Shown here: positions 3,060 to 62,457 of the stretch, piece by piece
Position numbering within the stretch: the stretch's first letter is position 1
Layout of the letters: the number at the start of each line of letters is the position of its first letter
DNA from: Bremia lactucae
Taxonomy: Eukaryota; Oomycota; Peronosporomycetes; Peronosporales; Peronosporaceae
DNA: 64,000 nucleotides
Assembly (NCBI RefSeq): GCF_004359215.1
Contig: NC_090622.1
Span: 1,128,518 to 1,192,517, forward strand
Direction of reading: 5' to 3'
The notes under the pieces: generated by a model
What the model was told of the DNA's origin: nothing
The model's database searches: none
Seen by the model: only the letters and a program-made list of their open reading frames with translations
Translations under genes and position numbers: made by a program

Positions 3060-3650
3060 TTAAGACAGACCTTTCCATGTGGTCTGTGACGCCAGCAATT
3101 TTGCAATCGGCTGTGCGTTAATGCAATACGACACAGACGGCGCGGAGCGCGACGTCTGTTCCCAACCGCGTCAGCTGCAACCAAAAACCAGCTGAGCGCA
3201 ATTACCCAGTGCATGACAAAGAAGTTCATGCCATGATACATGCACTGGCTAAATTTAGGGTCTATCTTCGAGGAGATGAACCGTTCATCGCATCCTGACC
3301 ACGCGTCATTGCGCACGGCCGTAAATAGCATAAACCTCTCGCAAAGAATGGCAAGGTGGCTATCCTTCTTCGCGGAGTATAATTGCTCCGTGAAATGTCA
3401 GGTAGGACGACTTAATGTCGTCGCTGATGCGTTATCACGCCGACCCGATTTCGAGTCGACTGCGCATAGAAACAGTGAAAATAGTCCTACTGTTGCAACA
3501 CTCATTTCAAGTGTTCCGCCATCAACCTTGTTTAGTGACATAAAGAAAGCCTACGCAGAAGATAAAGACCTTCTGCGTTCAATGGATCATCCAACGAATT
3601 TATCCCTCATCACGAAAAGCGTGATTTTTCCTTTCGTACTCCAACATTGA
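3060..3650 (+). pseudogene. RNase H and spacer, broken (Ty3-1)
   Basis: RNase H blocks are visible: FHVVCDASNFAIGCALMQYD near 3070-3140 (first catalytic Asp) and, further on, NVVADALSRRPDFES at about 3414-3460, the standard end of Ty3 RNase H. Between them the frame is lost. The spacer toward integrase (SSVPPSTLFSDIKKAYAEDK) follows and ends near 3630, where the element jumps to the antisense region; integrase is absent. Confidence 0.75.
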
Positions 3651-5124
3651 TTACGCACTCTTCGAACGGTTTTCTATTCGTTCGATGAAGTGAGCCTGCA
3701 CCGTCTGCTCCAGCAAACGACGCTTACCGCGCTCGTGTTCAAGACCCTCCTCCGATACATGGAGGTAGCGGTCGAGTTTCTCGATCTTCGACTCTAAATC
3801 CGACACACGATTAGATCTAATATTTTCTTTTACAACACAACCATTGGTGGATTCCCACAGTGATAAATGTTTCCTTGTGGAACGTTTTCTAAGCCACCGT
3901 GACGTGAAGGGGCAGCAAATGAGTTTTCTGGTTCGCTAACGCGGTTATCCACCTTTGCATGACAGCTGGGAGCCTCGTTCCCAGCTGGTTGTTGACGTTA
4001 AGGGCCTCGTCCGTCAGTATGACGAGACCCATCCGATGGATCCGAAGGTACATTGGTAAACACGCCCCCTGGCACTTGTAAATCGATTGCAAAACGTCAA
4101 TCGCATCGCGCATCTCGATAAAGATGCGAGCCGTTCCCAGGGCGAAAAAAGGGAATACACATTCTCTTTCACTCGTTTCGTGTGGTCGACACAGCGCGGA
4201 CAGGGATCATTGAAGTCCTTCCTCACGTGACAACCGATGCAATTTAAACCTTGCACCCGTTATTCAAACTTAAGCCTAATCGTGTTAAGGTTTTAAAGCC
4301 TGGCTATGCGTCCAATCTTTGACATTGCGAATAATTGCGTTCCAGGCTTGCATCAACGATTTTTTATCTCGCCTGTTGTTGCCACTGTTCCATCGATTAA
4401 GAAAAGCATCAAGATAAAATTCTTCCTCAGCGCGAAAGCTCTTCGCGCAGGGATGAAGGCCATGTAGCTTTGTCGCAATAAATAATACTTTTTGTGAGAA
4501 GTAGTCTCTCCAGACAAGCTACTGACTAGCCTTTCAGGCAAAAGCCACGGCTTCTTCTCAGGGGCAAGACGAGACATTTTATTGTCTTCGCCTCCTGAGT
4601 GGTACCCACTGAAGCAAGGGTACCACAAAACCTTTTATTACGATGGCTTGTGCCATCGTCATTACCACACGCAGAGATAAGTGCGGGTCAAGCACGGGAG
4701 ACGGTCCTGGCGACGAGCAATCATCCTTTTCGTCGGAACCAAACATGCTAAAGTGAACGCTATTAGCAGGACTATCCGCTTGAGCCCTCTCATTCGAAGG
4801 CTCATTTTCTGTCGCCTGCCGACGTTCAGGCGACTGTATCACTCTCCCCGAGTCGGCCATTTCGTACAACTCGCATTCATTGTCGACCTCCAAAGAGGGG
4901 TCGCATTTACGTTGTATATAGCTACGTGCACCCGCAACATTCAGAGTTGCGGGAGAAGATGACACTTCGGCTGACGAAACGTCTCCCGCAAGAGACAATA
5001 ATGCGTCGCCCGCGGCTGCATGTACCGCGGCCGAGATTTTCGCACTATCCGCAAACCTCATGGACTTGTTAACTATGCTATAGAATTGAAAATGATAATT
5101 CGGACCAATTACTATCGTTTCCAA
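3650..5124 (-). pseudogene. Antisense accessory ORF of Ty3-1 (broken)
   Basis: The frame runs opposite to gag-pol. Its best open part is 4579-5124 (181 codons). An inner start at 5061 aligns with the start of the Ty3-2 copy (AAVHAAAGDALLS here, AAVHAAAHDALLS there). It then has an acidic Ser-rich part (GSDEKDDCSSPGPSP) and continues in shifted frames to a Cys-rich block (NDPCPRC) at about 4190-4210 and a C-terminal hydrophilic part near 3700-3800. It starts about 130 bp inside the 3' LTR. No known domain is recognised. Homologues sit at the same place in Ty3-2, Ty3-4 and Ty3-6. Confidence 0.65.
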
Positions 5125-5180
5125 ATAAGTGGTCTCATAGTGATCACTCTCTTCAATGACAGTCAGAGTGATTGTCGTTT

Positions 5181-5193
5181 AAGGGAAGGGTGA
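5181..5193 (+). promoter_or_regulatory. Polypurine tract of Ty3-1
   Basis: AAGGGAAGGGTGA lies directly before the 3' LTR start TGTAACGGGG. This is the expected site for plus-strand DNA priming and it fixes the orientation of Ty3-1 as +. Confidence 0.8.
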
Positions 5194-7326: not shown

Positions 7327-8130
7327 TTACGTTAGAGCTACCGGAGATCGCAAGGACTGGTACTCTGGCGTGTAAGAAATAACGCCTTCCTTCGTACAGG
7401 CATCGATTTTCGGTGAGAGAATAACTGATAAAGCGATTGGATCTTCCTCCATGGCTTCATAATCGATTTCGAGCGTTCTCCGTCGAGTAAAGACGACGTA
7501 CATGGTCCATGCAGCTACGTGAAGTGCAATGACAAATACCTGCGGCCCAGCTATAATCCAATTAAAAGTCACTTGTCCATATGTAAACCATCCTAGCGTA
7601 TTTACTGTCGTGACAGCCAGTGCGCGTGTGTCAATTAATGCCACGGACTGCTGTTTAAATACTTGCACGAGTTTCTTAAGCATGGGAGTGTGTATCGAAA
7701 TGACAGTAACATCGCAAAAACATAGACCGTGAGTCTTCCAGATCTCTGGGCGAGATTGTCCTGTTAACCCTAAACTGGCAACGATGACGTAAAAGGTGGC
7801 TACAACAAGCCAACTAAACATAAAGCCAATTGTTTTGGCCACTGCATGTCGTTGTTCAGAGTATCGCCAGTAAATGAATAAGTAGCATAGCGACACAACG
7901 TCACCGATGAAAAAGACTGGGAAACTCGGGAACCAGACTCGGCCTAAATAACCGTAAAGCATCCAGACGTGAGAGTTGGCGAGCACCACAAGAATAGGGT
8001 CGATAGACGCTGACCCAACAGCGCGTTCGCTGTAGATACGCCGAACGAACCGCGAAGGCATGTAAATTGTAGCTAGTGTGCTAAACCAGATCCAGACACG
8101 CACTGCCATCACCACATTGGTGCTCACCAT
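7327..8130 (-). CDS. SWEET (MtN3/saliva) family sugar transporter
   Basis: 267 aa with seven hydrophobic segments, at about residues 8-24, 44-62, 68-88, 98-122, 135-150, 167-187 and 189-214, the usual 3-1-3 layout. The MtN3/saliva signature is seen as MPSRFVRRIYSERAVG after TM1 and HVWMLYGYLG at TM2, with a second repeat LGWFTYGQV at TM6. SWEETs move mono- and disaccharides down their gradient across plasma or vacuolar membranes; in a plant pathogen this would fit sugar uptake from the host, which is inference. The frame is open 24 codons further upstream, but only from a GTG; the ATG at 8130 (MVSTNVVM) places TM1 normally and is chosen. The C-terminal 50 residues are hydrophilic and cytosolic. 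The gene appears intact. Confidence 0.8.
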   Translation of the reverse strand: MVSTNVVMAVRVWIWFSTLATIYMPSRFVRRIYSERAVGSASIDPILVVLANSHVWMLYGYLGRVWFPSFPVFFIGDVVSLCYLFIYWRYSEQRHAVAKTIGFMFSWLVVATFYVIVASLGLTGQSRPEIWKTHGLCFCDVTVISIHTPMLKKLVQVFKQQSVALIDTRALAVTTVNTLGWFTYGQVTFNWIIAGPQVFVIALHVAAWTMYVVFTRRRTLEIDYEAMEEDPIALSVILSPKIDACTKEGVISYTPEYQSLRSPVALT

Positions 8131-8828
8131 TGTGGTGCAATTGGCAAAAGGTAGAATACTTTCGTGGTAGCGTGCGACTGGCAAATCAAGAACGATTGCC
8201 ACCTGCTAATCTTGCCGATGTGGTGACAATGTCACATTCTCTTGACAATTGATAGGTATATAAACACATGTGACCCCGCAGCATACCACGTATTCTAAAT
8301 AACCCGTTTAATACAGGTTGTTAGTAAATCGGTTTAGGAAGGTTCTATTTTTAACGATGACTCATGAACGCTTTTGGACAGCTGGTCTTCGCCGCATTGT
8401 GGGCCGCAGAAATATGTTCGTATACTTTAGTGGCACTGCCTTAGGCACGTGAGCATTCGCCAGTAAAAGCGCCCATAAAAAATGTTGCTGGGACGTCTGC
8501 ACAGGGAATGTCGTAAGCAGCAACAGGTCGCACTCATTTAATTTACGTTGCACATAAGGTAATTAATAGTTTAACTAAAAGATTGTGCTCAATTTGATTT
8601 AAGTGAGATATATCAAGGATGGAATCACGTTTGGCACATGATGTATATTTAATTCTCTGCGTATAATGTAGCCAAGTAGCACACTTTATTTGATTACAAA
8701 ATATTAAACTTGCTACGTCGTTCTGCAAAAGCAAGAATTTTTCCGATCATGAGGAAATTTTTCAAACTCAATATATATATATATTGTTTTTAGAAACATT
8801 CAGTTTGGCAATATTTAAGGACTCATAA
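8131..8828. other. Gene-free stretch upstream of the SWEET gene
   Basis: The presumed promoter of the SWEET gene lies at the left of this stretch. A short AT dinucleotide run sits at about 8770-8784. No coding frame is supported. Confidence 0.4.
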
Positions 8829-9728: not shown

Positions 9729-11127
9729 ATGCGGTCAGCGAACTGTGCAAGACTTTCGGCTGCGGTACATGCAGCCGCACACGACGCATTATTGTCTCAT
9801 GCGGCAGACAGCTCGTCTACCGTGTAGACAAGCTGTACTAATGTTGCGAGTGCACTGGTGAGTCACCACGTGAATTCGACTCCTCTTTGGAGGTCGACTA
9901 TGAATGCGAGTTGGACGAAGTGGCCGACTCGGGGTGAGTGGAACAGTCGCCTGAACGTCGTCAGGCGATTGAATATGAGCCTTCCAACAAGAGGGCTCAA
10001 GCGGATGGTTCTGCTAATAGCGTTCGCTATAGAATGTTTAATTCCGACGATGAGGATGATTGCTCATCGCCAGCACCGTCTCCGGTGCCGTCACCCGCAC
10101 ATATTCTGTACGTGGTAATGACGATGGCATAAGCCATCGTAATAAAAACTCTGGTCATACCTCTGCTTCAGTGGGTGCCACTCAGGAGAGTGCAGACAAT
10201 AAATTGTCTCGTCTGCGAACTCAGAAGAAGCTGTGGTTTTTGCTCGAACGGCTTGTCGATGGCTTGTCTGGAGCGACTACCCCTCGCAAAATGTATCCCT
10301 TATTTATTGCGAAAAAGCTAAATGGCCTTGATCCCAGCGCGAAAAACTTTCGCATATTTTTATCTTGATGATTTTCTTCATCAATGGTATAGTGGCAACA
10401 ACAAGCGAGATAAATAGGTCGTTGATGCAAGCCTTGAACGCAATTATTCGCAATCTCAAAGATTGGGTGCATGCTCTCGCTTTAAAAACTTACCGCGATT
10501 CGCGTTAAGTTTGAAAAAAGAACTCCAACCTGTGCAAGGTTTAAATTACATCGGTTGTCTCGTGAGGCAGGAATTCCATGCCTCACATGGGGTGATCCCT
10601 GTCCGTGTTGTTTCGACAACAAGAAACGAGTGAAAGAGGATGTTTACTCCCTTTCTTCGCCCGTGGGAAGGGCTCGCTTCTCTATCGAAATGCGCGATGC
10701 GATTGACGTTTTGCAATCAGTTTACAAGCGCCAGGGGCGCTTGACTTTGGATGTACCTTCTGATTCATCAGATGGGTCTCGTCATACTGACGGACGAGGC
10801 CCTAAACGTCAGCAGCCAGCTGGATCCGAGGCTTCCAGATGTCCTGTTGAGGTGGATAACCGCGCCAGCAAACAAGTTCACTCGTTCGCTACCCCTTCAC
10901 ATCGTAGTGGTTTACGATGCGTTCCACAAGAAAACGTTGACCATCGCGGGAATCCACCAATGGTTGTGGTGGAGGAGGAGAAATTAGATCCGACCTATAT
11001 GTCGGATCTGGAGTCGAAGTTGGAGGAGGGTCTTGATCACGAGCGCGGTAAGCGCCACTCCTTAAAACAGAAGGTGCTGACTCACTGTATCGAACGGTTG
11101 GAAGACCGTTCGAATGGTGCGTATTAA
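9729..11127 (+). pseudogene. Antisense accessory ORF of Ty3-2
   Basis: An ATG at 9729, 125 bp inside the 3' LTR, opens a frame on the strand opposite gag-pol. It is interrupted by stops or frameshifts near 9826, 10100, 10368 and 10505. The last part, to 11127, is open for about 190 codons. Order: Ala/Ser-rich N-terminus, acidic Ser region (SDDEDDCSSPAPSP), central block around KLWFLLERLVDGLSG, Cys block CLTWGDPCPCCF at about 10580-10615, REMRD-like helix (EMRDAIDVLQSVYKRQG), a Pro/Arg linker and a charged C-terminal helix (LESKLEEGLDHERGKRHSLK). No known domain is recognised. Homologues are in Ty3-1, Ty3-4 and Ty3-6. Function unknown. Confidence 0.7.
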
Positions 11128-11175
11128 ATGTTGGAGTACGAACGGAAGTATCAGGCTTCTGGTGACGAGCTGTCG

Positions 11176-12711: not shown

Positions 12712-13351
12712 ATTGCATTAATGAGCAGCCGATTGAGAAATCGCTGGCGTCACAGACCACATGGAATGGTCTATCTTGATCTGCAATCGCCAATATGGGC
12801 GATTGCATCAAGCTTTGCTTGATACCTTCAAACGAACCCTGACAATCAGCTTTCCATAACCATTTCTCGTCTTTTTTCAAGAGACGAGAGATATGAACTG
12901 TCATCTCTGCATAATTGCGAGAGTACTTGTGCAAGTACGCCGCTAATCCAAGGAACTTTCTAAGTCCCTTGACATCGACTGGAACTGACCAGTCGGTATT
13001 TGCCTTGATCTTTTCGAAATCAGGGCGCACGCCGTTTTTACCGACGATGCAGCCAAGAAGTGGTATTTCGCTTGCAGCGAATATACACTTATTAAGATTT
13101 GCGTACAACTTATGCGTTCGCATAAGTGTAAGAACCTGACGAACGTGAGTTTTATGAACTTCCGCGTCCGTCTTTCCGTCCATGGCGTCCATAGACGAAA
13201 AGATGGTACTCTTAGACATACCATCTACGATTACGTCTTTCCTAGGTATAGGTGTTTGAGCCGGTACCGTTGCAGCATTCAGTTTATAGAATGCATGCAC
13301 TATCCGCCACCCTCCTGTGGCCTTTCGCACACAGTTCGATGAAATCATCAT
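12620..13351 (-). pseudogene. Reverse transcriptase with in-frame deletion of the catalytic box (Ty3-2, left copy)
   Basis: The 243-codon frame starts with ATGGWRIVHAFYKLNAAT, the RT fingers, and runs to STIFSSMDAMDGKTDAEVHK. It then continues through the palm/thumb block (GVRPDFEKIKANTDW), the connection and early RNase H (FHVVCDASDFSIGCSLM). Compared with Ty3-1 and Ty3-5 the segment holding DLxDGYYQ and YFDD is gone. The missing length is 207 bp in Ty3-1 coordinates (2444 to 2651), a whole number of codons. The frame ends near 12620, where RNase H continues in another frame. Confidence 0.75.
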
Positions 13352-13439
13352 CGTACTGTAAATCTTTTAACGGTTAATGAAATTTCACTACGAGTTTCGA
13401 TGCTGTTATCGATGCACCTGTCGCTAGACGCACCGTCAT
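12726..13439. repeat. Contig-end overlap 1, left copy (714 bp)
   Basis: It is collinear with 13613-14326 (offset 887). It ends exactly at the N gap and its partner begins exactly after the gap. The part from about 12960 to 13439 appears identical; several substitutions are in 12726-12960. Confidence 0.85.
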
Positions 13440-13612
13440 NNNNNNNNNNNNNNNNNNNNNNNNNNNNNNNNNNNNNNNNNNNNNNNNNNNNNNNNNNNNN
13501 NNNNNNNNNNNNNNNNNNNNNNNNNNNNNNNNNNNNNNNNNNNNNNNNNNNNNNNNNNNNNNNNNNNNNNNNNNNNNNNNNNNNNNNNNNNNNNNNNNNN
13601 NNNNNNNNNNNN
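13440..13612. other. Assembly gap (173 N)
   Basis: A run of N inside Ty3-2. Flanks are copies of the same sequence, so the gap length is not informative. Confidence 0.99.
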
Positions 13613-14238: not shown

Positions 14239-14326
14239 CGTACTGTAAATCTTTTAACGGTTAATGAAATTTCACTACGAGTTTCGATGCTGTTATCGAT
14301 GCACCTGTCGCTAGACGCACCGTCAT
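13613..14326. repeat. Contig-end overlap 1, right copy (714 bp)
   Basis: Partner of 12726-13439, beginning at the first base after the N gap. The most economical reading is that two contigs overlap by 714 bp and were not merged. Confidence 0.85.
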
Positions 14327-15790: not shown

Positions 15791-15814
15791 CGTGTGCGGA
15801 TAGCTTGCTATGCG

Positions 15815-18110: not shown

Positions 18111-18114
18111 GAAA

Positions 18115-18115
18115 N
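18115..18115. other. Single N at a contig joint
   Basis: The N marks a jump from Ty3-3 integrase back to Ty3-2 gag, with the preceding 2.6 kb repeated afterward. Confidence 0.95.
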
Positions 18116-28317: not shown

Positions 28318-29190
28318 GTGAAACTCTCATTCAAGGGGATGAGGACTCACTCGAGCAAAGAACAATCTAGCTCTTGCTCATCACGCATTGACCCTACGGT
28401 CATGGCGAAGGATGCCAATGTTGATATAATCGAAATTGAAGTTGAGAAATTTAGAAATGACAATATTGCTATCATTGACTTTAGTAATGATGTTAGTGAG
28501 AACAATAACGCTCTCATTAAAGAGGAAATGACATCTCCGCAGTGCAAACCAGTCGCACTAATAAAAAATAAAACCGAGCCAACAGGATATTTCTTGCTGG
28601 CTAGAGAAGCAGTGGTCCGTAATACACGGGAATTTATCGCTGATGCGGTAGCCCGACAGAAAAACAGAACTCTGATAAACATGGAAGAGCAAACATTCTT
28701 CCATTTAATGTTAACGATCTTGTCCTGCTGTCAACGGTAAACCCTACCAAAACATGTAGTGACATATATAAGCAGTAATAAATTACTGCCAAGGTATATC
28801 GGCCCGTTTTGTGTACTGCATTGTGAAGGCAATGCGTACACGATCGATCTGCCTCGTAGGATACGTAGGCATCCTACGTTTTATGTAAGGCGTCTCTGCC
28901 CGTACCATCTGTACGAGGCTTCTTCCGATGCCGAATTAAACCTATACGGTCTAAAGAATCCGCCCAAGCTGTATGGTCCTGAGCCAAAGATTGAAAGTCT
29001 CGGGACAGAATTTGGTCCTTATAAACCAGAAAATTCATTCTTTCCTGTAAGAAAGAATTTTTTGGGCGAGCTATCACCAGCTCGTTTCGAAGGGAGTGAT
29101 GCGTCCTTTTGCTCGCCAGTTAATCGGTGGCAACCTGTGAACAATTTCTCAACTGGTCACGATAAAAACAGTATCGACGGTCAGCGCTAA
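28318..29190 (+). pseudogene. Post-integrase region of Ty3-4
   Basis: 28318-28740 is open for 140 codons and has the helix FLLAREAVVRNTREFIADAV found after integrase in Ty3-2 and Ty3-6. 28759-29190 has an SH3-like block (KLLPRYIGPFCVLHCEGNAY, TIDLPRRIRRHPTFYVRRL), the integrase C-terminal domain. No chromodomain is visible. The last part faces the C-terminus of the antisense ORF. Confidence 0.65.
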
Positions 29191-30687
29191 GTTGCGGCGA
29201 CGGGATCGCTCGTGATCCCTGTCCTTCCTCAAAAAATAAAAGAAGCGGTCCAAATTACGATGTTGATACGAGTTCGTCAAAGAGGCAAACCCGATTTTCC
29301 CACCTCCTCCAATTCATTAACGGACTCGACTGGTGGAAACCGTTTTCTTGTTGAAAGCTTTTCTAACCACCGAGAGGTGAAAGGGGCTCGAACATGTTAT
29401 CTTGTTCGTTGACGAGGGTATCCACCCTCCCGGATAGTTGAGAATCTCGTTCCCAATTGATGATGGACGTTCGGGGTCTCGCTCGACAGTACGACGAGAA
29501 CTAACCTCCTCGACAAAAGGCCCATCCGAGAACGAGCGCTTCCCCCACTCGTACAAACATTGGAGGTTATAAATTCCTTCTCGCATCTCATAAGCGATAA
29601 GCATCCCCCAATGAGGATCTTTAAGGGAGGGAGCATGCCTTGTTAGGGGTAACCTGCACCCTTAGAAGAGCATGGCCACAAGTCCCCCACGAAAGGCAAG
29701 ATTACCCTTCCTATCTAGACAAACGGTGAAGCTTGTAGCGTACACCGACTACGGTCCGTTTTTCGAGCCGTTCACGGAAAGCATCCAGTTTGTCAAGCCA
29801 GATCTAGCGGCCTAGGCTTTGAACATTCTGTACAAATGCGTCCCAACGGGAAAAAACGAGTGACATCCTTTGCCCGCCTACAAGTGTACCTCCTGTACCG
29901 AAAAAGGTATCATTTAAAAAAATTGTTTGGTCCTCACCAGGCTTGTGAAGCCTGGTTCAGTCGAACAACGGAACATGGCGCCGATCATTGGTCATACCAG
30001 AACAACAGGTTAGGTTGCCCTTGGAGGGCAACCAAGGCTTCTTTTCGGGATCAAACCGCAAAACATTGCGGTTCCTCACCCGTTGGTTTTCGTTAACATT
30101 AGTGCTAACATTACCCTCGTGGAGTTTCTAAGATTCACTCCTTCGCGGTGATGCATACTAGCACTACCAAAAACATTCTCTATGAAGTGGTCTTTGCGAT
30201 CACTTCGTTTTCAAAGATGCATACTTAAACGACGATCAGAGTGGTCGTCGTTTATGGAGTCATAACAAGATGACTACGCGCCAAATAGGTCTGGCTTAAA
30301 CAGCTTCGTCATCATATCTTTGGTAGTTACGTGCGATCCCAAAGGTTACACAGACGTAACCCCGGTTAAATCGGAGGCGTTGACAGTTTTCCCCGAGTTG
30401 AGCGAGGATGCCGACTCACAATGGAAATAGCAGGTGACTTGTTACTGCCACCTGCAATGGAAGCAGCAGATGCCATCCAGAGTAGACGCATTAGCGACCA
30501 CTGAAACATTTGCACTAGCAACAGCTGCCCTGATCCGTGCAGCTGTCAGCTTTGCGGTCTCACGGGTTACCCGCACGAACTTATTTAACGGCATATTGAT
30601 TTCTGAATAAATATCAACAATGCAATTTCTAATAAAAAACGAAAAATGCAAATTACGGCGGAAGACATAATAGTGTTTTCTCATCAC
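28874..30687 (-). pseudogene. Antisense accessory ORF of Ty3-4 (broken)
   Basis: The N-terminus is in 30442-30687: an inner ATG near 30594 starts MPLNKFVRVTRETAKLTAAR, followed by ANVSVVANASTLDGI. Ty3-6 has VRVGRVAAAAARISVAV and ANVSVDADVSTAGGI at the same place. Later blocks, in shifted frames, match Ty3-6 closely: YKLHRLSR near 29670-29750, then EWGKRSFSDGPFVEEVSSRR (29317-29604). The C-terminal charged helix (DFQSLAQDHTAWADSLDR, within 28874-29077) lies opposite the integrase C-terminus. No recognised domain. Confidence 0.65.
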
Positions 30688-34389: not shown

Positions 34390-34876
34390 TGTGATGGGGC
34401 ACACATCGGTTGGAGAACCGTTGTTGCGGTACATTTACTTATGGGTAAAATACCCTTTAATCTAATTTTAAAAATAGCTAGTTACTTAAATCTCATTTAT
34501 GATGGGTAATAAATGTGGTCGCCGCCAGATATAAATCTGGCGGCCACAATCTATTTTAATTAGCTAGGGTAAGGTTTTTAGATTTAAATAATTAAATAAA
34601 GTTCAGTTCCCCTTTTGATCTTAAAGCGTTAAGTGCCTTCCTAAGGCTTGCGCATTGATCTGTAAGAGATAGAAGCCTTTCTGAGGTATATCCTCTTGGG
34701 CACTACTTGAAACTTGGTCTACGAACCCCTGAATCCCTTGAACTAGGATTCCTTAAGCTTTGATAGCTTGTACGACTCATTGAGTTGTTAAACTCATAAG
34801 TTTAATGGAACGAAGTGACTCTCTGAGTCTGAAAGTCTTCCTCCTCTGACTTTATAAGCGAGTTAGCTCCGCTACA
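34390..34876 (+). repeat. 5' LTR of Ty3-5 (LTR-d)
   Basis: It begins TGTGATGGGGCACACATCGG and ends CTCCGCTACA. Target copy GCTTT precedes it. Primer site CCTGGTAGCACTCG follows at 34877. Confidence 0.9.
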
Positions 34877-34890
34877 CCTGGTAGCACTCG
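34877..34890 (+). promoter_or_regulatory. Primer binding site of Ty3-5
   Basis: CCTGGTAGCACTCG follows the LTR end. The TGGTAGCAC core is the same as in LTR-a and LTR-b elements. Confidence 0.65.
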
Positions 34891-38454: not shown

Positions 38455-39655
38455 TTGCCGGCACGTTTGCGTGCAAGGTTACATCGATTTTCTATCGATA
38501 ACAACCTGTTGCTTTATTGCACAGACATCGCGGACCTTCCGCGTGTCGTTGTTCCTAATGATGAGGATTTAAGTACCGGATCCTCTATGAGGCACATGAT
38601 ACTATCCTTGGTGGTCATCTCGGTAGAGAAAAGACCTGCGGCTCTATCAGCCAGAGTTATTGGTGGCCCAAACTATATAAATGGGTCAGCACATATGTTC
38701 GCACATGCGAAATGTGCCAACGGGTAAAACCCACGGCACATGCTGCTGCGCCACTAGCGAGTCTTCCAGTCCCCATAGGATGCTGGGAGTCTATTAGTAT
38801 GGATTTTGTTTTTGGCTACCGAAAGATTCAGCCGGTAACTCCGGTATAGTGGTCTTTGTTGACCGTTTTTGAGCAAAATGGTTCACTTAGCGGCCGTGCC
38901 GGATTCCATTGATGGAGAGGGTACAGCTAAGCTGTTCATCGATCGCGTGTTTCGACAACATGGTTTGCCAGTGGCAATTGTCTCTGATCGGGATCTTCAT
39001 TTCACGGGTAAATTCTGGAATCAATTTTCCGAGTGCTGGCACCAGATTTTTTATGTCCACTGGGGACCATTCGCAGACCGATGGTCAAACTGAACGTGTC
39101 AACTGCGTCATTGAAGACGTTTTACGCAGCGTGTGTGCTCAGACACCAAAGCGCTGGAGCTCAATGCTCCCAGTAGTAAAATATGCGTTAAATAACGCTG
39201 TTCATGCCTCTACAGGCTATACTCCGTTTTAAATAGAAGGTCTTACCCACTCGCGCGTTCTGTTAACGACACCACTGCGTGGTTCAGGGCTTGGTGGGGG
39301 AGAATTGGCCGATAGGCTTGCTGATATCAGCCCTGTTACCGTTCGGAAACAAGAAAGCGAGTTTCTCGCGACGCGATTTAGTTTCTTAAGACATGTAAGG
39401 GATACGATGGCTGATAGCCAAGACAAACAAAAAGAACAAGCAGATGCCAAAGGCAGAAGCTGTATTTATTCTTATATGGTCGGAGACCGACTTTTACTAA
39501 ACGCTAAAAACCTTCCTACCATCTTGGTTTCCGCGGTCTTCAAGACCAAATTGAGCCCGCGCTTTATTCCACCATTTACGGTCGTGGTCAAGAAGGGCCT
39601 AGCCTATACGCTAAACCTTTCAGCAAGCTGCGTACACACCCAGTGTTTTACGTGA
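38455..39655 (+). pseudogene. Integrase of Ty3-5, broken
   Basis: Zinc region: GGHLGREK-like sequence near 38610-38640 and TCEMCQRVKP near 38705-38730. Core: ISMDFVFGYRK near 38795-38825, SDRDLHFTGKFWNQF near 38983-39030 and DGQTERVNCVIED near 39080-39117, so all three catalytic residues (D, D, E) are present in different frames. 39305-39655 is open for 116 codons with the helix TMADSQDKQKEQADAKG and SH3-like strands (LSPRFIPPFTVVVKKGLAYTL, split by one residue limit here). Confidence 0.75.
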
Positions 39656-41145
39656 CTTGCATAAGCCATATCGGGACCCTTCCCACGTGGAATTGAAGGC
39701 GCTTGCGCCGAGACAGGCGGTCGTGTCGCAGATTGCTGCATCCTCACCAGGATGTTCAGCTGGCTCTCTAAGCGAGGCTGCTGACGCTCCAGCGTCGAAA
39801 GACGGTCCTGAACCGCCTCAAAAGAGCTCTCAACCCGAGCAAGGACCTCACGAAGAAGTTGCACCTCGTGCCGAAGAGCATCAAATGCTTCCTCCAAAAT
39901 TTCGGCCCCCTCCCGCGCTGTTTGATGCGCGGGGGAACCTTCAGTTTCATATGAAGAAACCTTTAAAGCGATGTCGTCGTGAAGGTCAATACCAGTATCT
40001 GATGAAGTGGCTAGGGTACCCCTCTTCTGAAAACTCTTGGGAGTTCGAGGTACCTCTTCGGCAAGATTGCCCGTACGCCGTTGACGTTTTTGAGCGCCAA
40101 GCTCAGAGTCAACTCGCGTCAAACGATGCTTCCCACTATTAGTCGTGGGATTAGGTGGATCTATAGCCTCACTGCGGCTTTGATGTATGGTTGTACGGTC
40201 AGCCGAAGCACTGAAATATTGGCTAGGCCTTCCTTCGTTTTGTGGCATAAATGCCGAACGTAACTGGCCTTTGGCTTTAAGCTTAGCAAAGTCGAAGCGA
40301 AGCTTTCGTTCCAAACGAACATCATCTCTATCCACAACCTCTCTGATATTCCAGATGTTACGGAGTTTGCGGTGAACCCATTTCTGAAGTGAGACTTCAT
40401 TTTCAGTTCTTGTTTCGTTTGGAAACAAAACGAGCGGAATTTTCCTCATGGAGGTCACCGAAGCCCCAGGGGCTTGATCACGCAATCGCGTCAGATACTT
40501 GCTTCGCGTCATTACCTTCGGCGTAAGGTATTGCTCATGAAGAGCGTCGCGAGCAGCGATCTCCTCCGGCATCCTCGCCGGGTCATCAGAGATCCAGATG
40601 GCCAAGCTATGACCCGCAATCTCTTTGAGACGCTCGTCAGCACTAAGCGGAGTGAATCTATATTCACTATGAGCCTTAGCTTTCGCTATTTCGGCATTTC
40701 GACGACGAGCTCTTTCCTCTATGAGGATTATCTGCTCTTGCTCTACATCGAGCGGATTCATAATAATGTTGGACTCAGGGTCCCGTGTCCTGCTCAATGC
40801 AATTAATACATCAGGGCCACCACGTTCTGGGAGCGGATTCGGGGCTCGCCGACGTTCGTCCGGAGGAGAAGGCGTGAGCGAACACCGCTCTTTTTCCACC
40901 TCCTCTGATTGAAAGTGACTTTTAAAGTCCACCATTTTCTCATCGTCGAGGAAGGTGCTCAGAGTCTGTGACTCACGCTTGAAAGTCATTAGACAAAGGA
41001 ATGAAAAACACAACCAAACGGTTAGCTGTTTAGGTTCCAACCTCAAAGAGGAAATGAAGCGAATGTTGTCACTCGGTGTCAACAATCTGATGGGGGAGGG
41101 CGTAATGGGGCACACATCGGTTGGAGAACCGTTGTTGCGGTACAT
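39604..41145 (-). CDS. Antisense accessory ORF of Ty3-5, 513 codons, uninterrupted
   Basis: The frame opens at an ATG at 41145, 45 bp inside the 3' LTR; an alternative ATG at 40989 lies outside it. Visible parts: a hydrophobic stretch at about residues 40-53, an acidic Pro/Arg-rich region, a long charged helical region (about 130-300, with LIEERARRRNAEIAKAKAHS), a basic nuclear-signal-like cluster (QKRQRR, about 345-350), and a strongly predicted coiled coil at about 412-471 (LREVLARVESSFEAVQDRLS). No enzyme motif or known family is recognised. Residues about 349-402 are encoded opposite the chromodomain. The frame has no stop although gag and pol on the other strand have many. Position matches antisense ORFs of other elements here. 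Could be a chance frame in a GC-rich stretch, but 513 codons makes that unlikely. Confidence 0.65.
   Translation of the reverse strand: MYRNNGSPTDVCPITPSPIRLLTPSDNIRFISSLRLEPKQLTVWLCFSFLCLMTFKRESQTLSTFLDDEKMVDFKSHFQSEEVEKERCSLTPSPPDERRRAPNPLPERGGPDVLIALSRTRDPESNIIMNPLDVEQEQIILIEERARRRNAEIAKAKAHSEYRFTPLSADERLKEIAGHSLAIWISDDPARMPEEIAARDALHEQYLTPKVMTRSKYLTRLRDQAPGASVTSMRKIPLVLFPNETRTENEVSLQKWVHRKLRNIWNIREVVDRDDVRLERKLRFDFAKLKAKGQLRSAFMPQNEGRPSQYFSASADRTTIHQSRSEAIDPPNPTTNSGKHRLTRVDSELGAQKRQRRTGNLAEEVPRTPKSFQKRGTLATSSDTGIDLHDDIALKVSSYETEGSPAHQTAREGAEILEEAFDALRHEVQLLREVLARVESSFEAVQDRLSTLERQQPRLESQLNILVRMQQSATRPPVSAQAPSIPRGKGPDMAYASHVKHWVCTQLAERFSV
39657..40142 (+). pseudogene. Integrase tail with chromodomain (Ty3-5)
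   Basis: 161 codons open. A Pro/Glu/Ser-rich linker precedes a chromodomain at residues about 95-147 (39939-40097): LKRCRREGQYQYLMKWLGYP, then SSENSWEFEVPL and DCPYAVDVFERQ. The aromatic and W-E-P type positions (YLMKW, SWE) agree with chromoviral integrase tails, which direct insertion to marked chromatin. The upstream part (KPYRDPSHVE) continues the SH3-like block after one frameshift. The whole stretch lies opposite the antisense ORF. Confidence 0.7.
41091..41100 (+). promoter_or_regulatory. Polypurine tract of Ty3-5
   Basis: TGGGGGAGGG immediately precedes the 3' LTR. Confidence 0.75.
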
Positions 41146-41585
41146 TTACTTTATGGACAAAATACCCTTTTATCTAATTTTAAAATAGTTAGTTACTTAA
41201 ATCCCATTTATTATAGGTAATAAATGTGGTCGCCGCCAGATATGAATTTGGCGACCAAAATCTATTTTAATTAGCTAGGGTAAGGTTTTTAGATTTAAAT
41301 AATTGAATAAAGTTCAGTTTCCCTTTTGATCTTAAAGCGTTAAGTGCCTTCTTAAGGCTTACGCATTGATATGTGAGAGATAGAAGCCTTTCTGAGGTAT
41401 ATCCTCTTGGGCACTAGTTGCCACTTTGTTCTACGAACCCCTGAATCCCTTGAACAAGGATTCCTTAAGCTTTGATAGCTTGTACGACTCCCTGAGTTGT
41501 TAAGCCCATAAGTTCAATAGAAATATGTGACTCTCTGAGTCTGAAAGTCTTCCTCTGACTTTAGGAGCGAGGTAGCTCCGCTACA
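41101..41585 (+). repeat. 3' LTR of Ty3-5 (LTR-d)
   Basis: It begins CGTAATGGGGCACACATCGG (first T changed relative to the 5' LTR) and ends CTCCGCTACA, followed by GCTTT. Confidence 0.9.
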
Positions 41586-41899
41586 GCTTTATTCCAAAAT
41601 GGTATAAAATTAGGTAATGGTGGGAGGGATCGGGGAGAAACCATTACAAATTTTAAAATTCAAGAGTACTTTGCACAGTGCTACCATGGCGGAGATCATG
41701 TTGCATTTTGCGAGCTACTTTACGAGCATTTCGGTGCTCAGGTTTGTAATATCAAGCAAAGAAGAAGAAACGCCAATACCTGGAGCTTTTCTGCCTTTGA
41801 AAATACGACCATTTCCTTTTTTCATGCATCTCCTCATCCTGCTCCTCAGCATGCTGTACATATGCCAAAATGTCATCATCAGCTAAATTAGTATGAGCT

Positions 41900-43340: not shown

Positions 43341-44385
43341 GACTCTTGGGAACCGATTGATACCCTACGTATTGACGTGCCCGGCTCGTTTGCTGCCTAT
43401 GAAACGGAGCACCAGCTGAGGCCTCTCCGTAAGTCTTAAATGGACTAGTAGAATTAGCGTTGTGAAAAGAAACAAAGCGTACAGTACCGCCCATGATGTA
43501 TTTCATACGCAAGTGGGCAAAATTAATTCGCTGCGACCGCTAGTTCATCGCATCGGAATGCGGATAAATGCGCCGCGTGAATTCCGCCTCGTATTGGTTG
43601 AGCGTTTTATTTGAGCGCAACACGACCGGGATCGGGAAAATACGCCCAAACAATTTTCCCTGAGCCTTTTATGATTTAAAGACGCCATAATATCGATGAG
43701 CGTCTAGAATTGCGCGCTCTAGGAGCGACGCTTTTGCCCCGTGTAAATGAGATCATTTAGATGGAGGAAGCATAAGTGATATGCCACCCGTCACATAGCC
43801 ACGTTCAAAACGACAGGCTTTTGACAACGACTGAGCACGTTCACGTGTCGTCTGCGAAGCTTTAGGATCAGATTTCTCTATGTCGGAACCATTATGGATA
43901 ATGGTCTGATCATAAGGCCTTGTGGTTTGACCCAGCGAAGAAGCGGCTGCGCCTTTATGGGTAGCGCTCTCATTAACCGTCGTTGCGCTAATCAGCGCAG
44001 ACGACGAGACAGCATTCGTGAATGTTGCTGTCTTCATGTTGTGAATCATAATAAAAGTTTGGATGGGCAATAATGCGCCATCATCCTTCCTCATGAGCTC
44101 GCTAACCGCATCAATTCTATGAGGCGACGGCAACGGTGTCGACTCATTGTAGTCGTCGACAATAAGCGACAGATCAACATCGTCACTGTTAAAGTAAGAT
44201 GAATCCTGAATCGCTATTAACGCGACAGCATCAGTAGCTGTCGGCGTTTCGACTAATGCATTAGACGCTACCGGCGTGCTAACACGGTGCGTGCGCTTAG
44301 TCTGATGTTGAGTGGGCGTCTTCGCAGACGACCCACCAACGCGACACCTTTTCGGTGACATCTTTGGCGCCGTGTATGTGAACAC
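43340..44385 (-). pseudogene. Antisense accessory ORF of an LTR-a element
   Basis: An ATG at 44385, 108 bp inside the 3' LTR-a (44494), opens 210 codons to 43753: a basic Thr/Ser-rich N-terminus (PKRCRVGGSSAKTPTQHQTK), an acidic patch (NSDDVDLSLIVDDYNES) and a Ser/Ala-rich middle. After two stops the same frame continues with KLFGRIFPIPVVLRSNKTLN and EAEFTRRIYPHSDAMN to about 43340. No known domain. It shows that LTR-a elements also have an antisense ORF at the 3' end, though its sequence is not clearly alignable with the LTR-b/LTR-c type. Confidence 0.55.
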
Positions 44386-44493: not shown

Positions 44494-45036
44494 TGTGACG
44501 GGCTAAAATTGCTCTAATGTTTCAAAATTCCCCGTTACGTACACTTGGTGTACTTAAAAGAATGGTCAATTTCTTAAATAAAAAAAGTAATTAGACCCAC
44601 CACTCGGGTGTGTTTCACATTCGTGACCAACCCTTGTGTATACGATGCACATAGGTGCATTCACATTAGGAGGGATGACGGCTAGCGTCTTCCGTTACGC
44701 AAGGTAATCAGAATGATACGCTCGCAATATGTAATATTGTTATCTTATCCACAGAGATGACATTTTTGATTGGTTAAAATATGTACTTATATTTTATTCG
44801 ACTAAATATAAATCAGTCTGAAAACTACTTCCTACTTAGTAAGTGCGCACGAGGAGCCGGATTTTCGCTCCCGTGATGACACCATACTAGAGTACTTAGT
44901 GCGTCGGGTGAGGTCGCTAAGGCGCCCACCAGAACTACCTCACTGCACGCAAGAGAAGACGGTCGAACCGCTTCCTCGCTGTGCTAGTTTGTGCGTCTAA
45001 GTAGAGCGTGGCCGCATTAAGATGTGCCCGCCTACA
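44494..45036 (+). repeat. 3' LTR-a (543 bp, fullest copy)
   Basis: It starts TGTGACGGGCTAAAATTGC and ends GTGCCCGCCTACA. It matches 24153-24672 in reverse and the fragments at 1-340 and 8829-9167. Confidence 0.85.
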
Positions 45037-51780: not shown

Positions 51781-51786
51781 TCGTTT

Positions 51787-51808
51787 AGAAATATATAAAT
51801 ATATATTT
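51787..51808 (-). promoter_or_regulatory. TATA-like AT-rich stretch upstream of the zinc-finger gene
   Basis: On the - strand it reads AAAATATATATTTATATATT, 7 to 28 bp before the first ATG. Most oomycete promoters lack a TATA box, so this is only a possible promoter element. Confidence 0.3.
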
Positions 51809-57580: not shown

Positions 57581-58969
57581 CTATACCTCGGTAAGTTGCG
57601 CGGTCTCCAAGTGACCCGTTTGGTTCATGTACGTGAGCTGCACATTGCCGACGCTGTCAATGTCCATGGCGGTAATACCGCAGTGGTTATAGCGCATGCG
57701 GCCCCACGTCCCATCGGGATCGACGCCGAGCGCCTTGCACACAAACCAGCGAATGACATTAGCATGGCACACGACGACACGAAATCGGTCCTTGGGTCGC
57801 GTTTGCGTCGAATGGACCCCAAATGTCGATGCATAGAGCTTTTGATCTTCTTCACTCAATTCCCGCTCGTCGACTTCGAGATCCTGTGGAATCAAGTGTC
57901 GAAACATCATGCGATACGCCATCTTCAGGCGCGCGCAATCGGAGACCATATTGTCAAGTTTCTCTCTCGCAAGTTGTTGCCGATTACTATTCGGGAGGGG
58001 GTTCCCCGGCCACGCTTCTCGATACAATTTATTTTCCCCAAAACGTACCTTCCCTGTGGGAAAAGCGTCTCCAATTGTTTGTGCCGTTTCGACGGCACGA
58101 CGGATGCCACTATGGTAAATAGGAAATGTAGGGTATCGTTTAAGTACCATTCGGTCGGACAAATATTTATACAAAAAGGTTCCGGTGGCACGAGCCTGCT
58201 GAACCCCGAGCTCCGTCAAGGGACCGCGCAGGTCCGTCGAGGGCGTCGGAGACGTATTGTAATGTCCGTGACGCACGAATATGACGTGCGTGGAACGGCT
58301 TTGGTCCACGAGTGACAAGTTGGAAGATGGAGCGATTACACGAGCCTCAGCGGCCACGGCAATGGCTGTCATCCAGTCCATTAAAACATGCACGCTTACC
58401 GCCGCAAGATTGCGTGTACTACCATTGGCCAACTTTAGACAAAAGGACGAATTGTCTTGGCGGTCGACAGTAGCCCCACTAATGTCCCACGCCCCCTTGA
58501 TCGCGCCATATCGCTGCTTGCTGTCGATCGTGTAGTACGACAGTTCTTGTCCTCGTAGTACAAAAATCCGCTACATATCGTACACTTTTAGCTGAATACA
58601 TGTCCGCACATATTTGAAAAAAATTGATCGTACATTTTTCCAGGATTGCAAACCAGACTCGCCTTTTTTCAAGAGCTGGCCCTCCATGAGCACGTCGGTC
58701 TTGAAAATCTGGACCCGAGCGTCCTGGAGTTTCGATTCGGAGAAATTGTTGCTCAAGTCCGTGACCACGGTCGAACGCATCATCGAAGACGGGCGTAGGA
58801 GAGACGCCATCATGGACGGTCGAGGGGCGTGGGAGTCGTTTGCCACTTGCGAGGCACCAAGGCCACCACTGGACGTGGGTGCAAAGTGATTGAAATTCGA
58901 CAGACGCGAGTTTAGCACATGCGACGGTCGCACGTCCTCCTCGGTTTGATCTGGCGACATTATTGGCAT
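57581..58969 (-). CDS. PH domain-histidine phosphatase (PGAM5-like) fusion, two exons
   Basis: Exons 58969-58634 and 58570-57581 on the - strand, 441 aa. The 63-nt intron (GTACGA..ATGTAG, 58571-58633) lies inside the PH domain: exon 1 ends SGLQSWKN and exon 2 starts RIFVLRGQELSYY, together the standard PH sequence. PH covers about 93-195. The phosphatase follows: RHGHYN at 212-217 with catalytic His213, Arg269/270 in the GIRRAVETA block, and VVCHANVIRW with His381; the end (MRYNHCGITAMDID) is typical of PGAM5, a Ser/Thr/His phosphatase of the histidine phosphatase superfamily rather than a glycolytic mutase. PGAM5 is anchored to mitochondria by an N-terminal segment; here a PH domain replaces it, suggesting phosphoinositide-directed targeting (inference). 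A Ser-rich, unstructured N-terminus of about 90 residues precedes. Without splicing, the two frames are separated by a stop. Confidence 0.85.
58571..58633 (-). other. Intron of the PH-phosphatase gene (63 nt)
   Basis: It has GT..AG ends, is in phase 0 between codons AAT and CGG, and its removal restores the PH core. The length fits oomycete introns and matches those inferred for the LYR gene. Confidence 0.8.
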
Positions 58970-60060: not shown

Positions 60061-60508
60061 GGAACCTTTACTAGTACTGGTAAGTATTAGTTAACCTTAC
60101 ACTGATTACAGTGTAGGTAGGGTGCCTCGGAACTTCACGTACACAAGAGTACAGAGGAAAGTTTCTAAGTAATTTAGGAGCTTTGGCTACCAAAAGGTAA
60201 TCCAATGGATTTTAGAGTTAGGTAAAAGTGCAACTGTATAAATAGAATTAGCTTCCTACGTAACGATGCTCTATCTACTACTAAACTTATTTTACTAATA
60301 TCCAACTAAGTATGGCGCCTCCTTGCGGGTTGATCTAGACTTAAATCAACCAATCAGTAAAGCTAATATTTCATTGCATCAATAATATCAGATTTGGTAT
60401 TATTGGAACCATGTAAGTCAAAATTACTAATAATGATAATAATTTTGTAATTCTTTGCTTATTTCCTCTTATCGGAAATAATACTTATGTAACGGGACAC
60501 ACGTTACA
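60061..60508 (-). repeat. 3' LTR of Ty3-6 (LTR-c)
   Basis: On the - strand it starts TGTAACGTGTGTCCCGTTACA at 60508 (two residues longer than quoted elsewhere) and continues as in Ty3-4. The left end is set where similarity to 24956 stops. Adjacent GGGGGGCGTGA on the - strand is the polypurine tract. Confidence 0.75.
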
Positions 60509-60720
60509 TCACGCCCCCCTAACGGACATTCACTTAAGTGATTGATGTAGGGTGACAGGCGAGATTATTAAGTCTTTCCCTGTAATTCGCATTATTAGTT
60601 TTAATCAAAATACCGATTTCAATTGCTTTTTAATTTTAGTCAAAGTACCGATTTTATTTGCATTTTATTTCTAATCAAAATACCTATTTTATTTGCATTC
60701 TTCATTTTTACCAGAATCAA

Positions 60721-62457
60721 GATGAGTCTGTGCGCGTCGGCCGCGTGGCCGCTGCAGCTGCACGGATTAGTGTAGCTGTCTATAAGGCAAATGTTTCAGT
60801 AGACGCTGATGTGTCTACTGCGGGGGGAATAGCTCCTTCTCCTCCCATTGGAGGCGACTGGTATATCATCTGTTGATGGCATTGCAGGTGGCAGGGACAA
60901 GTCACCTGCTCCACCAATTGTAGGTGACTGGACCAAGTCACCTGCATCGCCCGACTCAATGTCTACTGAGAAGGCCGCCGAATCACCCGGGGCCAAGTCC
61001 GTTAAACCTTTGGGTTTTAACATGACTATTAAAGAGGTAATGACGAGGTTGTTTGACTAATCGGACCTCTTTGGTGGGAAGTCACATCATTTGACTCCGA
61101 GGGCGATGACCACTCTATTGACTCAAGTATGCGTCACCAGGAATTAAGTGGTCGCGAAGTTAAGAGCGCTGCTTGTGGTGCTAGTTTGCATCACCAGAAA
61201 AGAAGTAAATTTAGGGATTGCTTCCAACGTCAATTTAACGCTAACGTTATCATAAGCCAGCAGGAGAAGGACCGCAATACGTTGCGGTTCGCTCCTGAAA
61301 AGAGGCCTTGGATACCCTCTAAGAAAAATTGCATTCGGTGGTCTGGTATGACCAACGATCAATATCATATTCCGTAATTCGACTCATCCAGGCTTCACAA
61401 GCCTGGTTGGTTACCCACTAAGAAAAATTGCATTCGTTGGTCTGGTATGACCAACGATCAATATCATATTCCGTTATTCGACTCATCCAGGCTTTACAAG
61501 CCTGGTGAAAATAAAACAGAATTTTTCATCGATGCCTTTTACGGTATCGGTGGTATGCTTGCAAACGGGCAAAGGAGGTCAAACCTTTGTTGCAAGTTTG
61601 GACAGCTGTTGTACAGAATGTACAAAATATAGTCTGTGAGGTCTGGCTTGACGAGCTAAATGCTTTTCGTGAACGGTTCGACAGACGGACCGTAGTCGGT
61701 CCACGCTATAAGTTGCACCGTTTGTCTAGAGAGGCAGGGACTCCTTGCCTCTCGTGGGAGGACTCATGCCCATGCTGTTTCAAGGCAGGTGATGCCCCTA
61801 AGAAAGCATATTCTCTCAAAGATACTCATCGGAGGACTTTTATCTCTTACGAGATACCTTAAAGGACCATCATTTCACGAGCGCGGAAAGCGCTCGTTCT
61901 CCGATGGACCTTCTGCCGAGGAGGATGGGTCTCGTCGCACTGCAAGTCGAGATCCGGAACGTCCAACATCAGTTTGGAACGAGGTTCCCAACTATAATGC
62001 GATGGTGGATACCCTCGCCAACGAACGAGATAATTCGTTCGAGCCCCCTTTGCCTCACGGTGGTCCAAGAAACTTTCAACAAGAAAGCGCTTTTACCACC
62101 TGTATTAATCAATGGTAATAAAGGGGGAGGAAGATCAGGTTCGCCTCGTTTGGCGAGCACGATTATACATCGTGATTTGGATCACACCCTTTCTTATTTA
62201 AGGATGAATCTTTATCCGCGCGATCCCGTCGCCGCGAGTTTGCGGTGACGGTCGATAATGTTTCTCGGGGCCAGTTAAAATGTGGTGCGCAGTGTGCGAC
62301 TGAACAACTAACGAGCGAAAGAACAAATCAGTCCCTTCAAAACGAAATGTTGACAGCTCGTCAGAAGATATCTTCCTTGGAGGAAAGAGTGTATCGTCTG
62401 GTTCAAGAGAATCGAACCATGTTCCGAGACAATAAGTCTTTGGCTCAGAACCATTAG
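60721..62457 (+). pseudogene. Antisense accessory ORF of Ty3-6
   Basis: It reads + while pol reads -. N-terminus 60658-60876: ESVRVGRVAAAAARISVAVY and ANVSVDADVSTAGGI, matching Ty3-4. A central block follows (61129-61632), including IPLFDSSRLYKPGENKTEFF. Then 61587-61862 is open and holds ELNAFRERFDRRTVVGPRYK, LHRLSREAGTPCLSW and EDSCPCCF. 61789-62118 continues (HERGKRSFSDGPSAEEDGSR). 62245-62457 ends with a coiled-coil-like part (EMLTARQKISSLEERVYRLV). A near-exact direct repeat at about 61317-61400 and 61420-61500 duplicates the KKNCIRWSGMTNDQYHIP coding stretch. Frame changes separate the pieces. Function unknown. Confidence 0.65.

What the first reader, a model, noticed from the sequence alone, without database searches (positions are those of the whole stretch)
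3650..62457. A conserved antisense accessory ORF in the 3' part of Ty3/gypsy elements
In Ty3-1 (5124-3650, -), Ty3-2 (9729-11127, +), Ty3-4 (30687-28874, -) and Ty3-6 (60721-62457, +) a frame opposite to gag-pol starts 0.04-0.22 kb inside the 3' LTR and reads toward integrase. Orientation is fixed in each case by the polypurine tract and the gag-pol order. The four share an N-terminal block (AAVHAAAGDALLS / AAVHAAAHDALLS; ARIRAAVASANVSV / ARISVAVYKANVSV), a Cys block (CLTWGDPCPCCF / CLSWEDSCPCCF) and a charged C-terminal helix. Two further LTR families (LTR-a at 44385-43340; LTR-d at 41145-39604) have a frame at the same position. Antisense extra ORFs near the 3' LTR are known in some plant Ty3 elements; I know of no named family for this one in oomycetes. 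Inference: an LTR-driven antisense gene, perhaps controlling the element or chromatin.
Basis: partly seen in the sequence, partly recalled or inferred. Interest (0 to 1): 0.86.

Follow-up and report, generated by a model that had tools for sequence, protein, structure and literature searches.

The report
Antisense gene inside oomycete retrotransposons
Jumping genes in this oomycete genome carry a second, backwards-reading protein gene that partly shares its DNA with the element's own chromatin-binding domain and shows signs of natural selection, so it is very probably a real accessory gene and not chance.

Summary
The antisense frame is real and protein-coding. In the window the frames of the four named Ty3 elements are broken; only LTR-d has a long open one (41145-39604, -; likely ATG 40989). 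In 30 own-genome copies of the LTR-d family and 30 of the Ty3-2 family, variants shared by four or more copies are enriched for synonymous changes in the antisense frame outside pol (OR 3.1, p=1e-4; OR 3.5, p=4e-5; singletons as baseline); an LTR control shows nothing. No sense frame is open there. The gene runs tail-to-tail over the sense chromodomain (opposite strand in 36 of 36 and 30 of 30 loci); in the integrase-chromodomain linker of the Ty3-2 family the antisense frame is the constrained one. Named protein relatives come from Peronospora, Hyaloperonospora and, for LTR-d, Phytophthora sojae, nearly all labelled uncharacterized. LTR-a has a frame at the same place, but its selection test was inconclusive. 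Layout: acidic N-terminus, basic helical core, disordered segment, long predicted coiled coil. Best reading: an accessory, probably nuclear, oligomeric regulator working like plant antisense extra ORFs or HTLV HBZ. Transcription, LTR promoter and function are untested. New variant of a known kind.

The parts
39664..40989 (-). LTR-d antisense gene (family D): ATG at 40989; stop shared by relatives near 39664 is lost in this copy, which stays open to 39604
   Evidence: open frame 41145-39604; P0001, P0003, P0004 and P0010 end at 39664; P0001 and P0003 begin at 40989; selection
39615..40142 (+). sense C-terminus of LTR-d pol (linker and chromodomain), overlapped tail-to-tail by the antisense gene
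   Evidence: PF00385 Chromo, E=9e-8 (32.4 bits, cut-off 25.1)
39969..40097 (+). chromodomain of LTR-d pol
   Evidence: residues 119-161 of window:39615-40139
41092..41100 (+). polypurine tract of LTR-d
   Evidence: sequence
41103..41588 (+). 3' LTR of LTR-d
   Evidence: 91.4% identical to the 5' LTR over 491 columns
34392..34879 (+). 5' LTR of LTR-d
9729..11127 (+). Ty3-2 antisense gene (family B), broken; ATG 9729, open piece 10486-11127 with HC3 motif
3651..5061 (-). Ty3-1 antisense gene (family B), broken; ATG 5061, open piece 5178-4579
28874..30594 (-). Ty3-4 antisense gene (family B, second subgroup), broken; possible ATG 30594
60721..62457 (+). Ty3-6 antisense gene (family B, second subgroup), broken; no in-frame ATG seen at the start; HC3 motif intact
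61859..62092 (-). sense chromodomain of Ty3-6, opposite the antisense frame
   Evidence: PF00385, E=4.5e-11
43756..44361 (-). LTR-a antisense frame (family A), ATG 44361; a relative continues it (433 codons open in L076)
44494..45034 (+). 3' LTR of LTR-a, preceded by a polypurine tract

Best explanation
Chromodomain-bearing Ty3/gypsy elements of this oomycete and of its relatives carry a conserved antisense accessory protein gene. It starts about 114-136 bp inside the 3' LTR, reads back towards integrase, and ends opposite the integrase-chromodomain linker, so the end of pol is coded on both strands (shown for families B and D in this genome; for relatives inferred from protein). The protein has an acidic N-terminus, a basic helical core (with an H-x9-C-x6-C-x2-C motif in family B), a disordered segment opposite the chromodomain, a long coiled coil and, in B, a basic tail (predicted). 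Most likely it is translated from an antisense RNA that starts in or next to the 3' LTR, enters the nucleus, forms oligomers through the coiled coil, binds nucleic acid through the core, and regulates expression or integration of the element (all inferred).
For: Open antisense frame outside pol in the least decayed copies: D L001 0 stops against 19, 29, 8, 9, 22 in the other five frames; B L035 0 against 3, 20, 11, 5, 7. Shared (4+ copies) against singleton variants, synonymous/other, antisense frame: D from the ATG to the end of pol 29/27 vs 142/406, OR 3.07, p=1.3e-4; B whole non-overlap 29/27 vs 103/332, OR 3.46, p=3.8e-5; a B core stretch, picked, OR 6.64, p=2.6e-7; in the B linker the antisense frame has OR 2.01, p=0.03 (2.54, p=0.008 at 6+ copies) and the sense frame 1.07, ns; beyond the antisense stop the sense frame has OR 4.41, p=0.01. 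D codon positions 12/14/34 shared, 217/184/227 single, LTR-side control 22/24/20. Chromodomain opposite in 36 of 36 D and 30 of 30 B loci. Relatives: 193 B proteins, 37 D proteins by profile. In relatives known only as protein, differing residues fit an opposite chromodomain better than shuffles: B 12 of 12 rows tested, D 17 of 19 with 0 of 300. AlphaFold2: B core residues 171-270 about pLDDT 88-93 and a helix 429-536 mostly over 90. Core pI 9.8 and 10.0, N-terminal pI 4.5 and 4.7.
Against: No RNA or protein data. No fold or Pfam match names a function. Nuclear entry rests on short basic motifs only. Overall model confidence is low (mean pLDDT 58.7 and pTM 0.36 for B, 56.1 and 0.29 for D); only parts are well predicted. 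D linker selection not significant (OR 1.91, p=0.26). LTR-a selection test not significant (p=0.14-0.49 over the stretch tested). The protein-only shuffle test is inflated by conservative replacement: control z up to 3.8. A sense frame whose third positions coincide with the antisense ones also scores (D OR 2.12, p=0.009; B OR 3.11, p=1.4e-4), as expected from the coincidence; like the other sense frames it has stops in each row.
Confidence: 0.62

Rival explanations
1. The similarity comes wholly from the sense protein: the chromodomain end of pol is conserved, and its reverse strand happens to stay open.
For: True in part: in the chromodomain stretch the antisense frame shows no significant selection of its own (B OR 1.49, p=0.45; D 0 of 5 deep variants synonymous), and residue changes in relatives follow the chromodomain.
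Against: About 0.85 kb of coding sequence (D) and at least 0.58 kb (B) lie beyond the end of pol, where all sense frames have stops and the antisense frame is the selected one. In the B linker the antisense frame, not the sense frame, is constrained.
Confidence: 0.03
2. The product that matters is an antisense RNA (double-stranded RNA feeding small RNAs), and the ORF is a by-product.
For: Convergent overlapping transcripts would give double-stranded RNA; small RNAs map to Gypsy elements in both orientations in Phytophthora infestans (PMC3522703, passages seen); PMC7264820 raises the idea for plants.
Against: Codon-level selection and full-length relatives at about 40% identity in other named species. 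It may act beside the protein.
Confidence: 0.12
3. The antisense protein acts in particles or integration (a nucleic-acid chaperone or targeting partner of the chromodomain integrase) rather than in gene control.
For: Basic core plus long coiled coil recalls LINE-1 ORF1p (recalled; the PDB profile hit to its coiled coil, E=0.22 is not significant); the gene lies opposite the chromodomain in all 66 D and B loci checked.
Against: Antisense coding gives no direct route into Gag particles; basic NLS-like clusters point to the nucleus, weakly.
Confidence: 0.25
4. An old nested insertion or captured gene lying backwards, passively carried.
For: Origin is unknown; P0016 bears the automatic name Core-binding (CB) domain-containing protein.
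Against: Fixed position relative to the LTR in five elements, same phase to the chromodomain in D and B, continued selection; a passive insert would decay.
Confidence: 0.04

Closest known systems
Antisense additional ORFs (aORF-3R) of plant Ty3/gypsy elements: maize Grande gene23, rice RIRE2, Silene Retand, PvRetro13 (PMC7264820, PMC11963269)
   Same: A conserved protein gene between pol and 3' LTR, antisense to gag-pol, in most copies; function unknown, nuclear for Grande
   Different: No TRP28 (PF04195) domain found; host elements carry a chromodomain (Retand is non-chromovirus); the gene overlaps pol; pol-to-LTR space in LTR-d is about 1 kb, not the 2.9-6.6 kb of Retand
Antisense ORF of fungal Boty (cited in PMC7264820)
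   Same: Same position and strand, outside plants
   Different: No sequence was available to compare; not tested
HTLV-1 HBZ and HTLV-2 APH-2 (antisense genes of retroviruses; named in PMC11963269; HTLV antisense promoter in PMC7264820)
   Same: Antisense gene near the 3' LTR; acidic, basic and coiled-coil layout (HBZ layout recalled)
   Different: No bZIP match; no sequence comparison made; promoter not tested
Chronos group of oomycete Ty3/gypsy elements (PMC5348765)
   Same: Oomycete Ty3/gypsy with a chromodomain in pol
   Different: The held main text has no occurrence of 'antisense'; presence of its extra RNase H was not tested here

Membership tests
Antisense additional ORFs of LTR retrotransposons (aORF-3R, general class) | ORF between pol and 3' LTR, antisense to gag-pol | tested here: met
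   it also overlaps the end of pol
Antisense additional ORFs of LTR retrotransposons (aORF-3R, general class) | conserved as a protein across copies and species | tested here: met
   (families B and D); LTR-a inconclusive
Antisense additional ORFs of LTR retrotransposons (aORF-3R, general class) | antisense transcript from its own or an LTR promoter | not testable with these tools
   no expression data held
Retand antisense ORF | TRP28 / Transposase_28 domain (PF04195) | tested here: not met
   no PF04195 row among 10 antisense proteins at E up to 10 nor 6 antisense frames at E up to 1; HMMER's filters can drop weak matches. A genome search found none, but its control also rang nowhere
Retand antisense ORF | non-chromovirus host element | tested here: not met
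   chromodomain present
HBZ-like antisense retroviral protein | bZIP domain | tested here: not met
   no bZIP row among 10 proteins at E up to 10; long coiled coil predicted
HBZ-like antisense retroviral protein | antisense promoter in the 3' LTR | not testable with these tools
   only position known: ATG 114-136 bp from the LTR
Chronos (host element) | chromodomain in pol | tested here: met
Chronos (host element) | additional plant/archaeal-type RNase H | not tested
   only the ordinary Ty3 RNase H models appeared (some window ORFs); several genome copies hold long N stretches
Tyrosine recombinase core-binding domain (from the name of P0016) | Pfam or fold match to a recombinase | tested here: inconclusive
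   no Pfam row for P0016 at E up to 10; no confident fold match for the B model

The most novel reading that the evidence does not exclude
All three antisense proteins (A, B, D) descend from one ancient gene that became locked opposite the chromodomain when oomycete Ty3 elements gained it, making a retrotransposon analogue of HBZ whose coding sequence cannot be separated from the element's chromatin-targeting module. Hints: same position; the same phase to the chromodomain and the same domain layout in B and D; a shared short N-terminal VDYxxS-like motif in D, B and A (6 of 12, 66 of 77, 13 of 19; shuffles 0-5% for D and B, not run for A; many B rows are near copies of each other); and weak D-A similarity (E=8e-4, probability 24%).
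Probability: 0.33. Interest if true: 0.8.

Novelty: new variant of a known kind. Interest (0 to 1): 0.62.

Why it matters
Antisense extra genes in LTR retrotransposons are known mainly from plants. Here they appear in oomycetes with new protein families, at least about a hundred matches per family in one genome, and codon-level evidence of selection, part of it inside a two-strand overlap with pol. Large numbers of 'uncharacterized' proteins in downy mildew proteomes (two 90%-identity clusters named after Peronospora matthiolae hold 524 and 1335 member sequences) are probably this gene and should be labelled as transposon-encoded. The repeated opposition to the chromodomain makes a testable link between element control and chromatin targeting.
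Full report
What was checked. The window is G000:C13:1128518-1192517 of a 115.9 Mb genome. The quoted amino-acid blocks are present on the strand opposite to gag-pol, but in the window the four Ty3 frames are split by stops and frame changes. LTR-d alone has a long open antisense frame, 41145-39604, 513 codons. Its LTRs are 91.4% identical (36 mismatches and 6 gaps over 491 columns), so it is an old insertion.

Anatomy. LTR-d is a Ty3/gypsy element on the + strand with a polypurine tract at 41092-41100 and the 3' LTR from 41103. Its pol ends at 40142 with a chromodomain (PF00385, E=9e-8). Relatives P0001 and P0003 align from 40989, an ATG, and P0001, P0003, P0004 and P0010 end at 39664; the window copy has lost that stop. 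So the natural gene is about 40989 to 39664, with about 480 bp tail-to-tail over pol. In family B (Ty3-1, 2, 4, 6) the reference copy L035 has pol ending in a chromodomain (E=3e-14), and its antisense frame overlaps pol by about 700 bp, chromodomain and linker together. LTR-a was first suspected to be a sense gag; L067, L068 and L069 show RNase H, chromodomain and integrase pieces on the other strand, and a polypurine tract precedes its LTR in the window. ATG-to-LTR distances read from sequence are 114 (LTR-d), 130 (Ty3-1), 126 (Ty3-2), 136 (Ty3-4) and 133 bp (LTR-a). A chromodomain on the opposite strand was found in 36 of 36 D loci (some are near-identical duplicates) and 30 of 30 B loci; one locus in each set also had one on the same strand.

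Abundance. The genome search counted 101 matches for the D protein, 151 for B (Ty3-2 piece), 150 for B (Ty3-1 piece) and 150 for LTR-a, lower bounds because only the best candidates are scored. 16 of the 30 best B copies and 2 of the 30 best D copies have no stop in the matched stretch.

Selection test. Copies decay after insertion, so variants seen in one copy are close to neutral, while variants shared by four or more copies largely predate insertion. D: 36 loci were available; 6 identical or near-identical ones were dropped, leaving 30. Outside pol, shared variants fall 12/14/34 on antisense codon positions 1/2/3, singletons 217/184/227, and shared variants in the LTR-side control 22/24/20. 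Classed by effect, from the ATG to the end of pol, shared 29 synonymous and 27 other against singletons 142 and 406: OR 3.07, p=1.3e-4 (with 111 bp upstream included OR 3.17, p=3.2e-5). The sense frame in the pol phase gives OR 0.74 and the LTR control 1.43, both ns. B: 30 loci (the best 30 of 151). Whole non-overlap: 29/27 against 103/332, OR 3.46, p=3.8e-5; sense frame in the pol phase 1.41, ns. A core stretch chosen: 24/12 against 72/239, OR 6.64, p=2.6e-7. Another sense frame, whose third positions coincide with the antisense ones, also scores (D OR 2.12, p=0.009; B OR 3.11, p=1.4e-4); but every sense frame has at least 6 stops in each D row and at least 3 in each B row, so coding there is not a workable reading. 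LTR-a: 20 rows (window plus 19 loci, all 19 chosen for having no stop); OR 1.27-1.45, p=0.14-0.49, inconclusive.

Two-strand overlap. In the B linker, antisense position 3 falls on sense position 2 and antisense position 2 on sense position 3. Variants shared by six or more copies fall 9/9/23 on antisense positions (23 of 41, p=0.004): sense position 2 varies most and sense position 3 little, the reverse of what a constrained sense protein would give. Antisense OR 2.01, p=0.03 (2.54, p=0.008 at six or more copies), sense 1.07. Beyond the antisense stop, the sense frame becomes the constrained one (OR 4.41, p=0.0097) and the antisense one not (1.29), a positive control. In the chromodomain stretch of B neither frame is significant alone (antisense 1.49, p=0.45; sense 2.11, p=0.1). 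In D the chromodomain and linker stretches give nothing significant in either frame (linker antisense 1.91, p=0.26).

Relatives. The B protein (L035, 427 codons) found 193 proteins, of which 120 are listed, including Peronospora matthiolae, P. effusa and Hyaloperonospora arabidopsidis; two clusters named after P. matthiolae hold 524 and 1335 sequences. The D profile found 37, including Phytophthora sojae, P. effusa, P. destructor, P. matthiolae, H. arabidopsidis and H. brassicae. Except for the CB-domain name of P0016, the named ones carry only labels such as uncharacterized, unnamed or hypothetical. Since their DNA was out of reach, I asked whether residues that differ from the reference still allow a chromodomain on the other strand more than the same residues shuffled among those places. 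B: 12 of the 24 aligned relatives were tested, z 3.8-6.9, 0 of 300 shuffles in each; linker z 0.1-2.5 (8 rows); non-overlap control z 0.1-3.7 (8 rows). D: 19 of 22 rows evaluable, 17 with 0 of 300, exceptions P0142 (26 of 300) and P0146 (2 of 300); medians 4.6 chromodomain, 2.1 linker, 2.3 control. The control is inflated by conservative replacement, so the evidence is the excess over it. The P. sojae row gives z 3.6 against 0.5 in the control.

The protein. 25 B rows share 12 invariant residues, and H-x9-C-x6-C-x2-C stands in 24 of 25 rows and 99 of 120 listed proteins; zinc binding is inferred. AlphaFold2 on B: helical core 171-270 at pLDDT about 88-93, an almost unbroken helix 429-536 mostly over 90, the rest low, mean 58.7. 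D: helices and coiled coil at moderate confidence, mean 56.1. Both have acidic N-termini (pI 4.5, 4.7) and basic cores (9.8, 10.0), and the 9 proteins looked at hold K-K/R-x-K/R clusters. No antisense protein reaches the cut-off of a Pfam family (in one search the best E-values of the 25 families shown of 47 are 0.00025 and weaker). No fold match is confident. D and B do not match by profile over the cores; D and LTR-a match weakly (E=8e-4 at 24% probability; 0.017 at 3% with a longer frame). A short VDYxxS-like motif recurs near the N-terminus of D, B and A.

Mechanism. Shown: a conserved, selected antisense protein gene of chromodomain-bearing Ty3 elements (D and B), with its end on the other strand of pol. 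Inferred: antisense transcription from in or near the 3' LTR, nuclear entry, oligomer formation, nucleic-acid binding, and regulation of the element. The plant literature offers the same general idea for its antisense ORFs: Grande's protein is nuclear and made from its own promoter, and Retand's TRP28 domain is predicted to bind DNA (PMC7264820 and PMC11963269). An RNA-level role may coexist.

Verdict. Real, protein-coding, a new variant of a known kind (antisense accessory ORFs), with new protein families and an overlap with the chromodomain that I did not find described in the searches named.

Noticed in passing
window 15514-20716: A 2.6 kb stretch stands twice in tandem at 99.1% identity (15514-18114 and 18116-20716); both copies hold pieces related to LTR-a elements.
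   Followed up: no
window 61308-61506: A 99-bp tandem duplication (95% identical), a whole number of codons, lies inside the antisense region of Ty3-6.
   Followed up: no
window 60595-60708: A 35-bp tandem array just inside the 3' LTR of Ty3-6, near where the antisense start would be.
   Followed up: no
window 12726-14326: A 714-bp duplication (97.6%) of the RT/RNase H part in Ty3-2.
   Followed up: no
window 46439-50098: Likely host gene with RCC1 repeats and a RabGAP-TBC domain, 1219 codons open.
   Followed up: no
window 7330-8205 (-), 57584-58570 (-), 50689-51807 (-): Other likely host genes: SWEET-type sugar transporter (PF03083), histidine phosphatase with a PH match just under its cut-off, WRKY19-type zinc fingers.
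   Followed up: no
P0016 (Hyaloperonospora arabidopsidis): Family B relative bears the automatic name Core-binding (CB) domain-containing protein, though no Pfam row was returned for it.
   Followed up: partly
L035, L046, L068: N stretches beside the antisense gene in some genome copies, long in L035 and L046 (towards pol) and 100 bases in L068.
   Followed up: no
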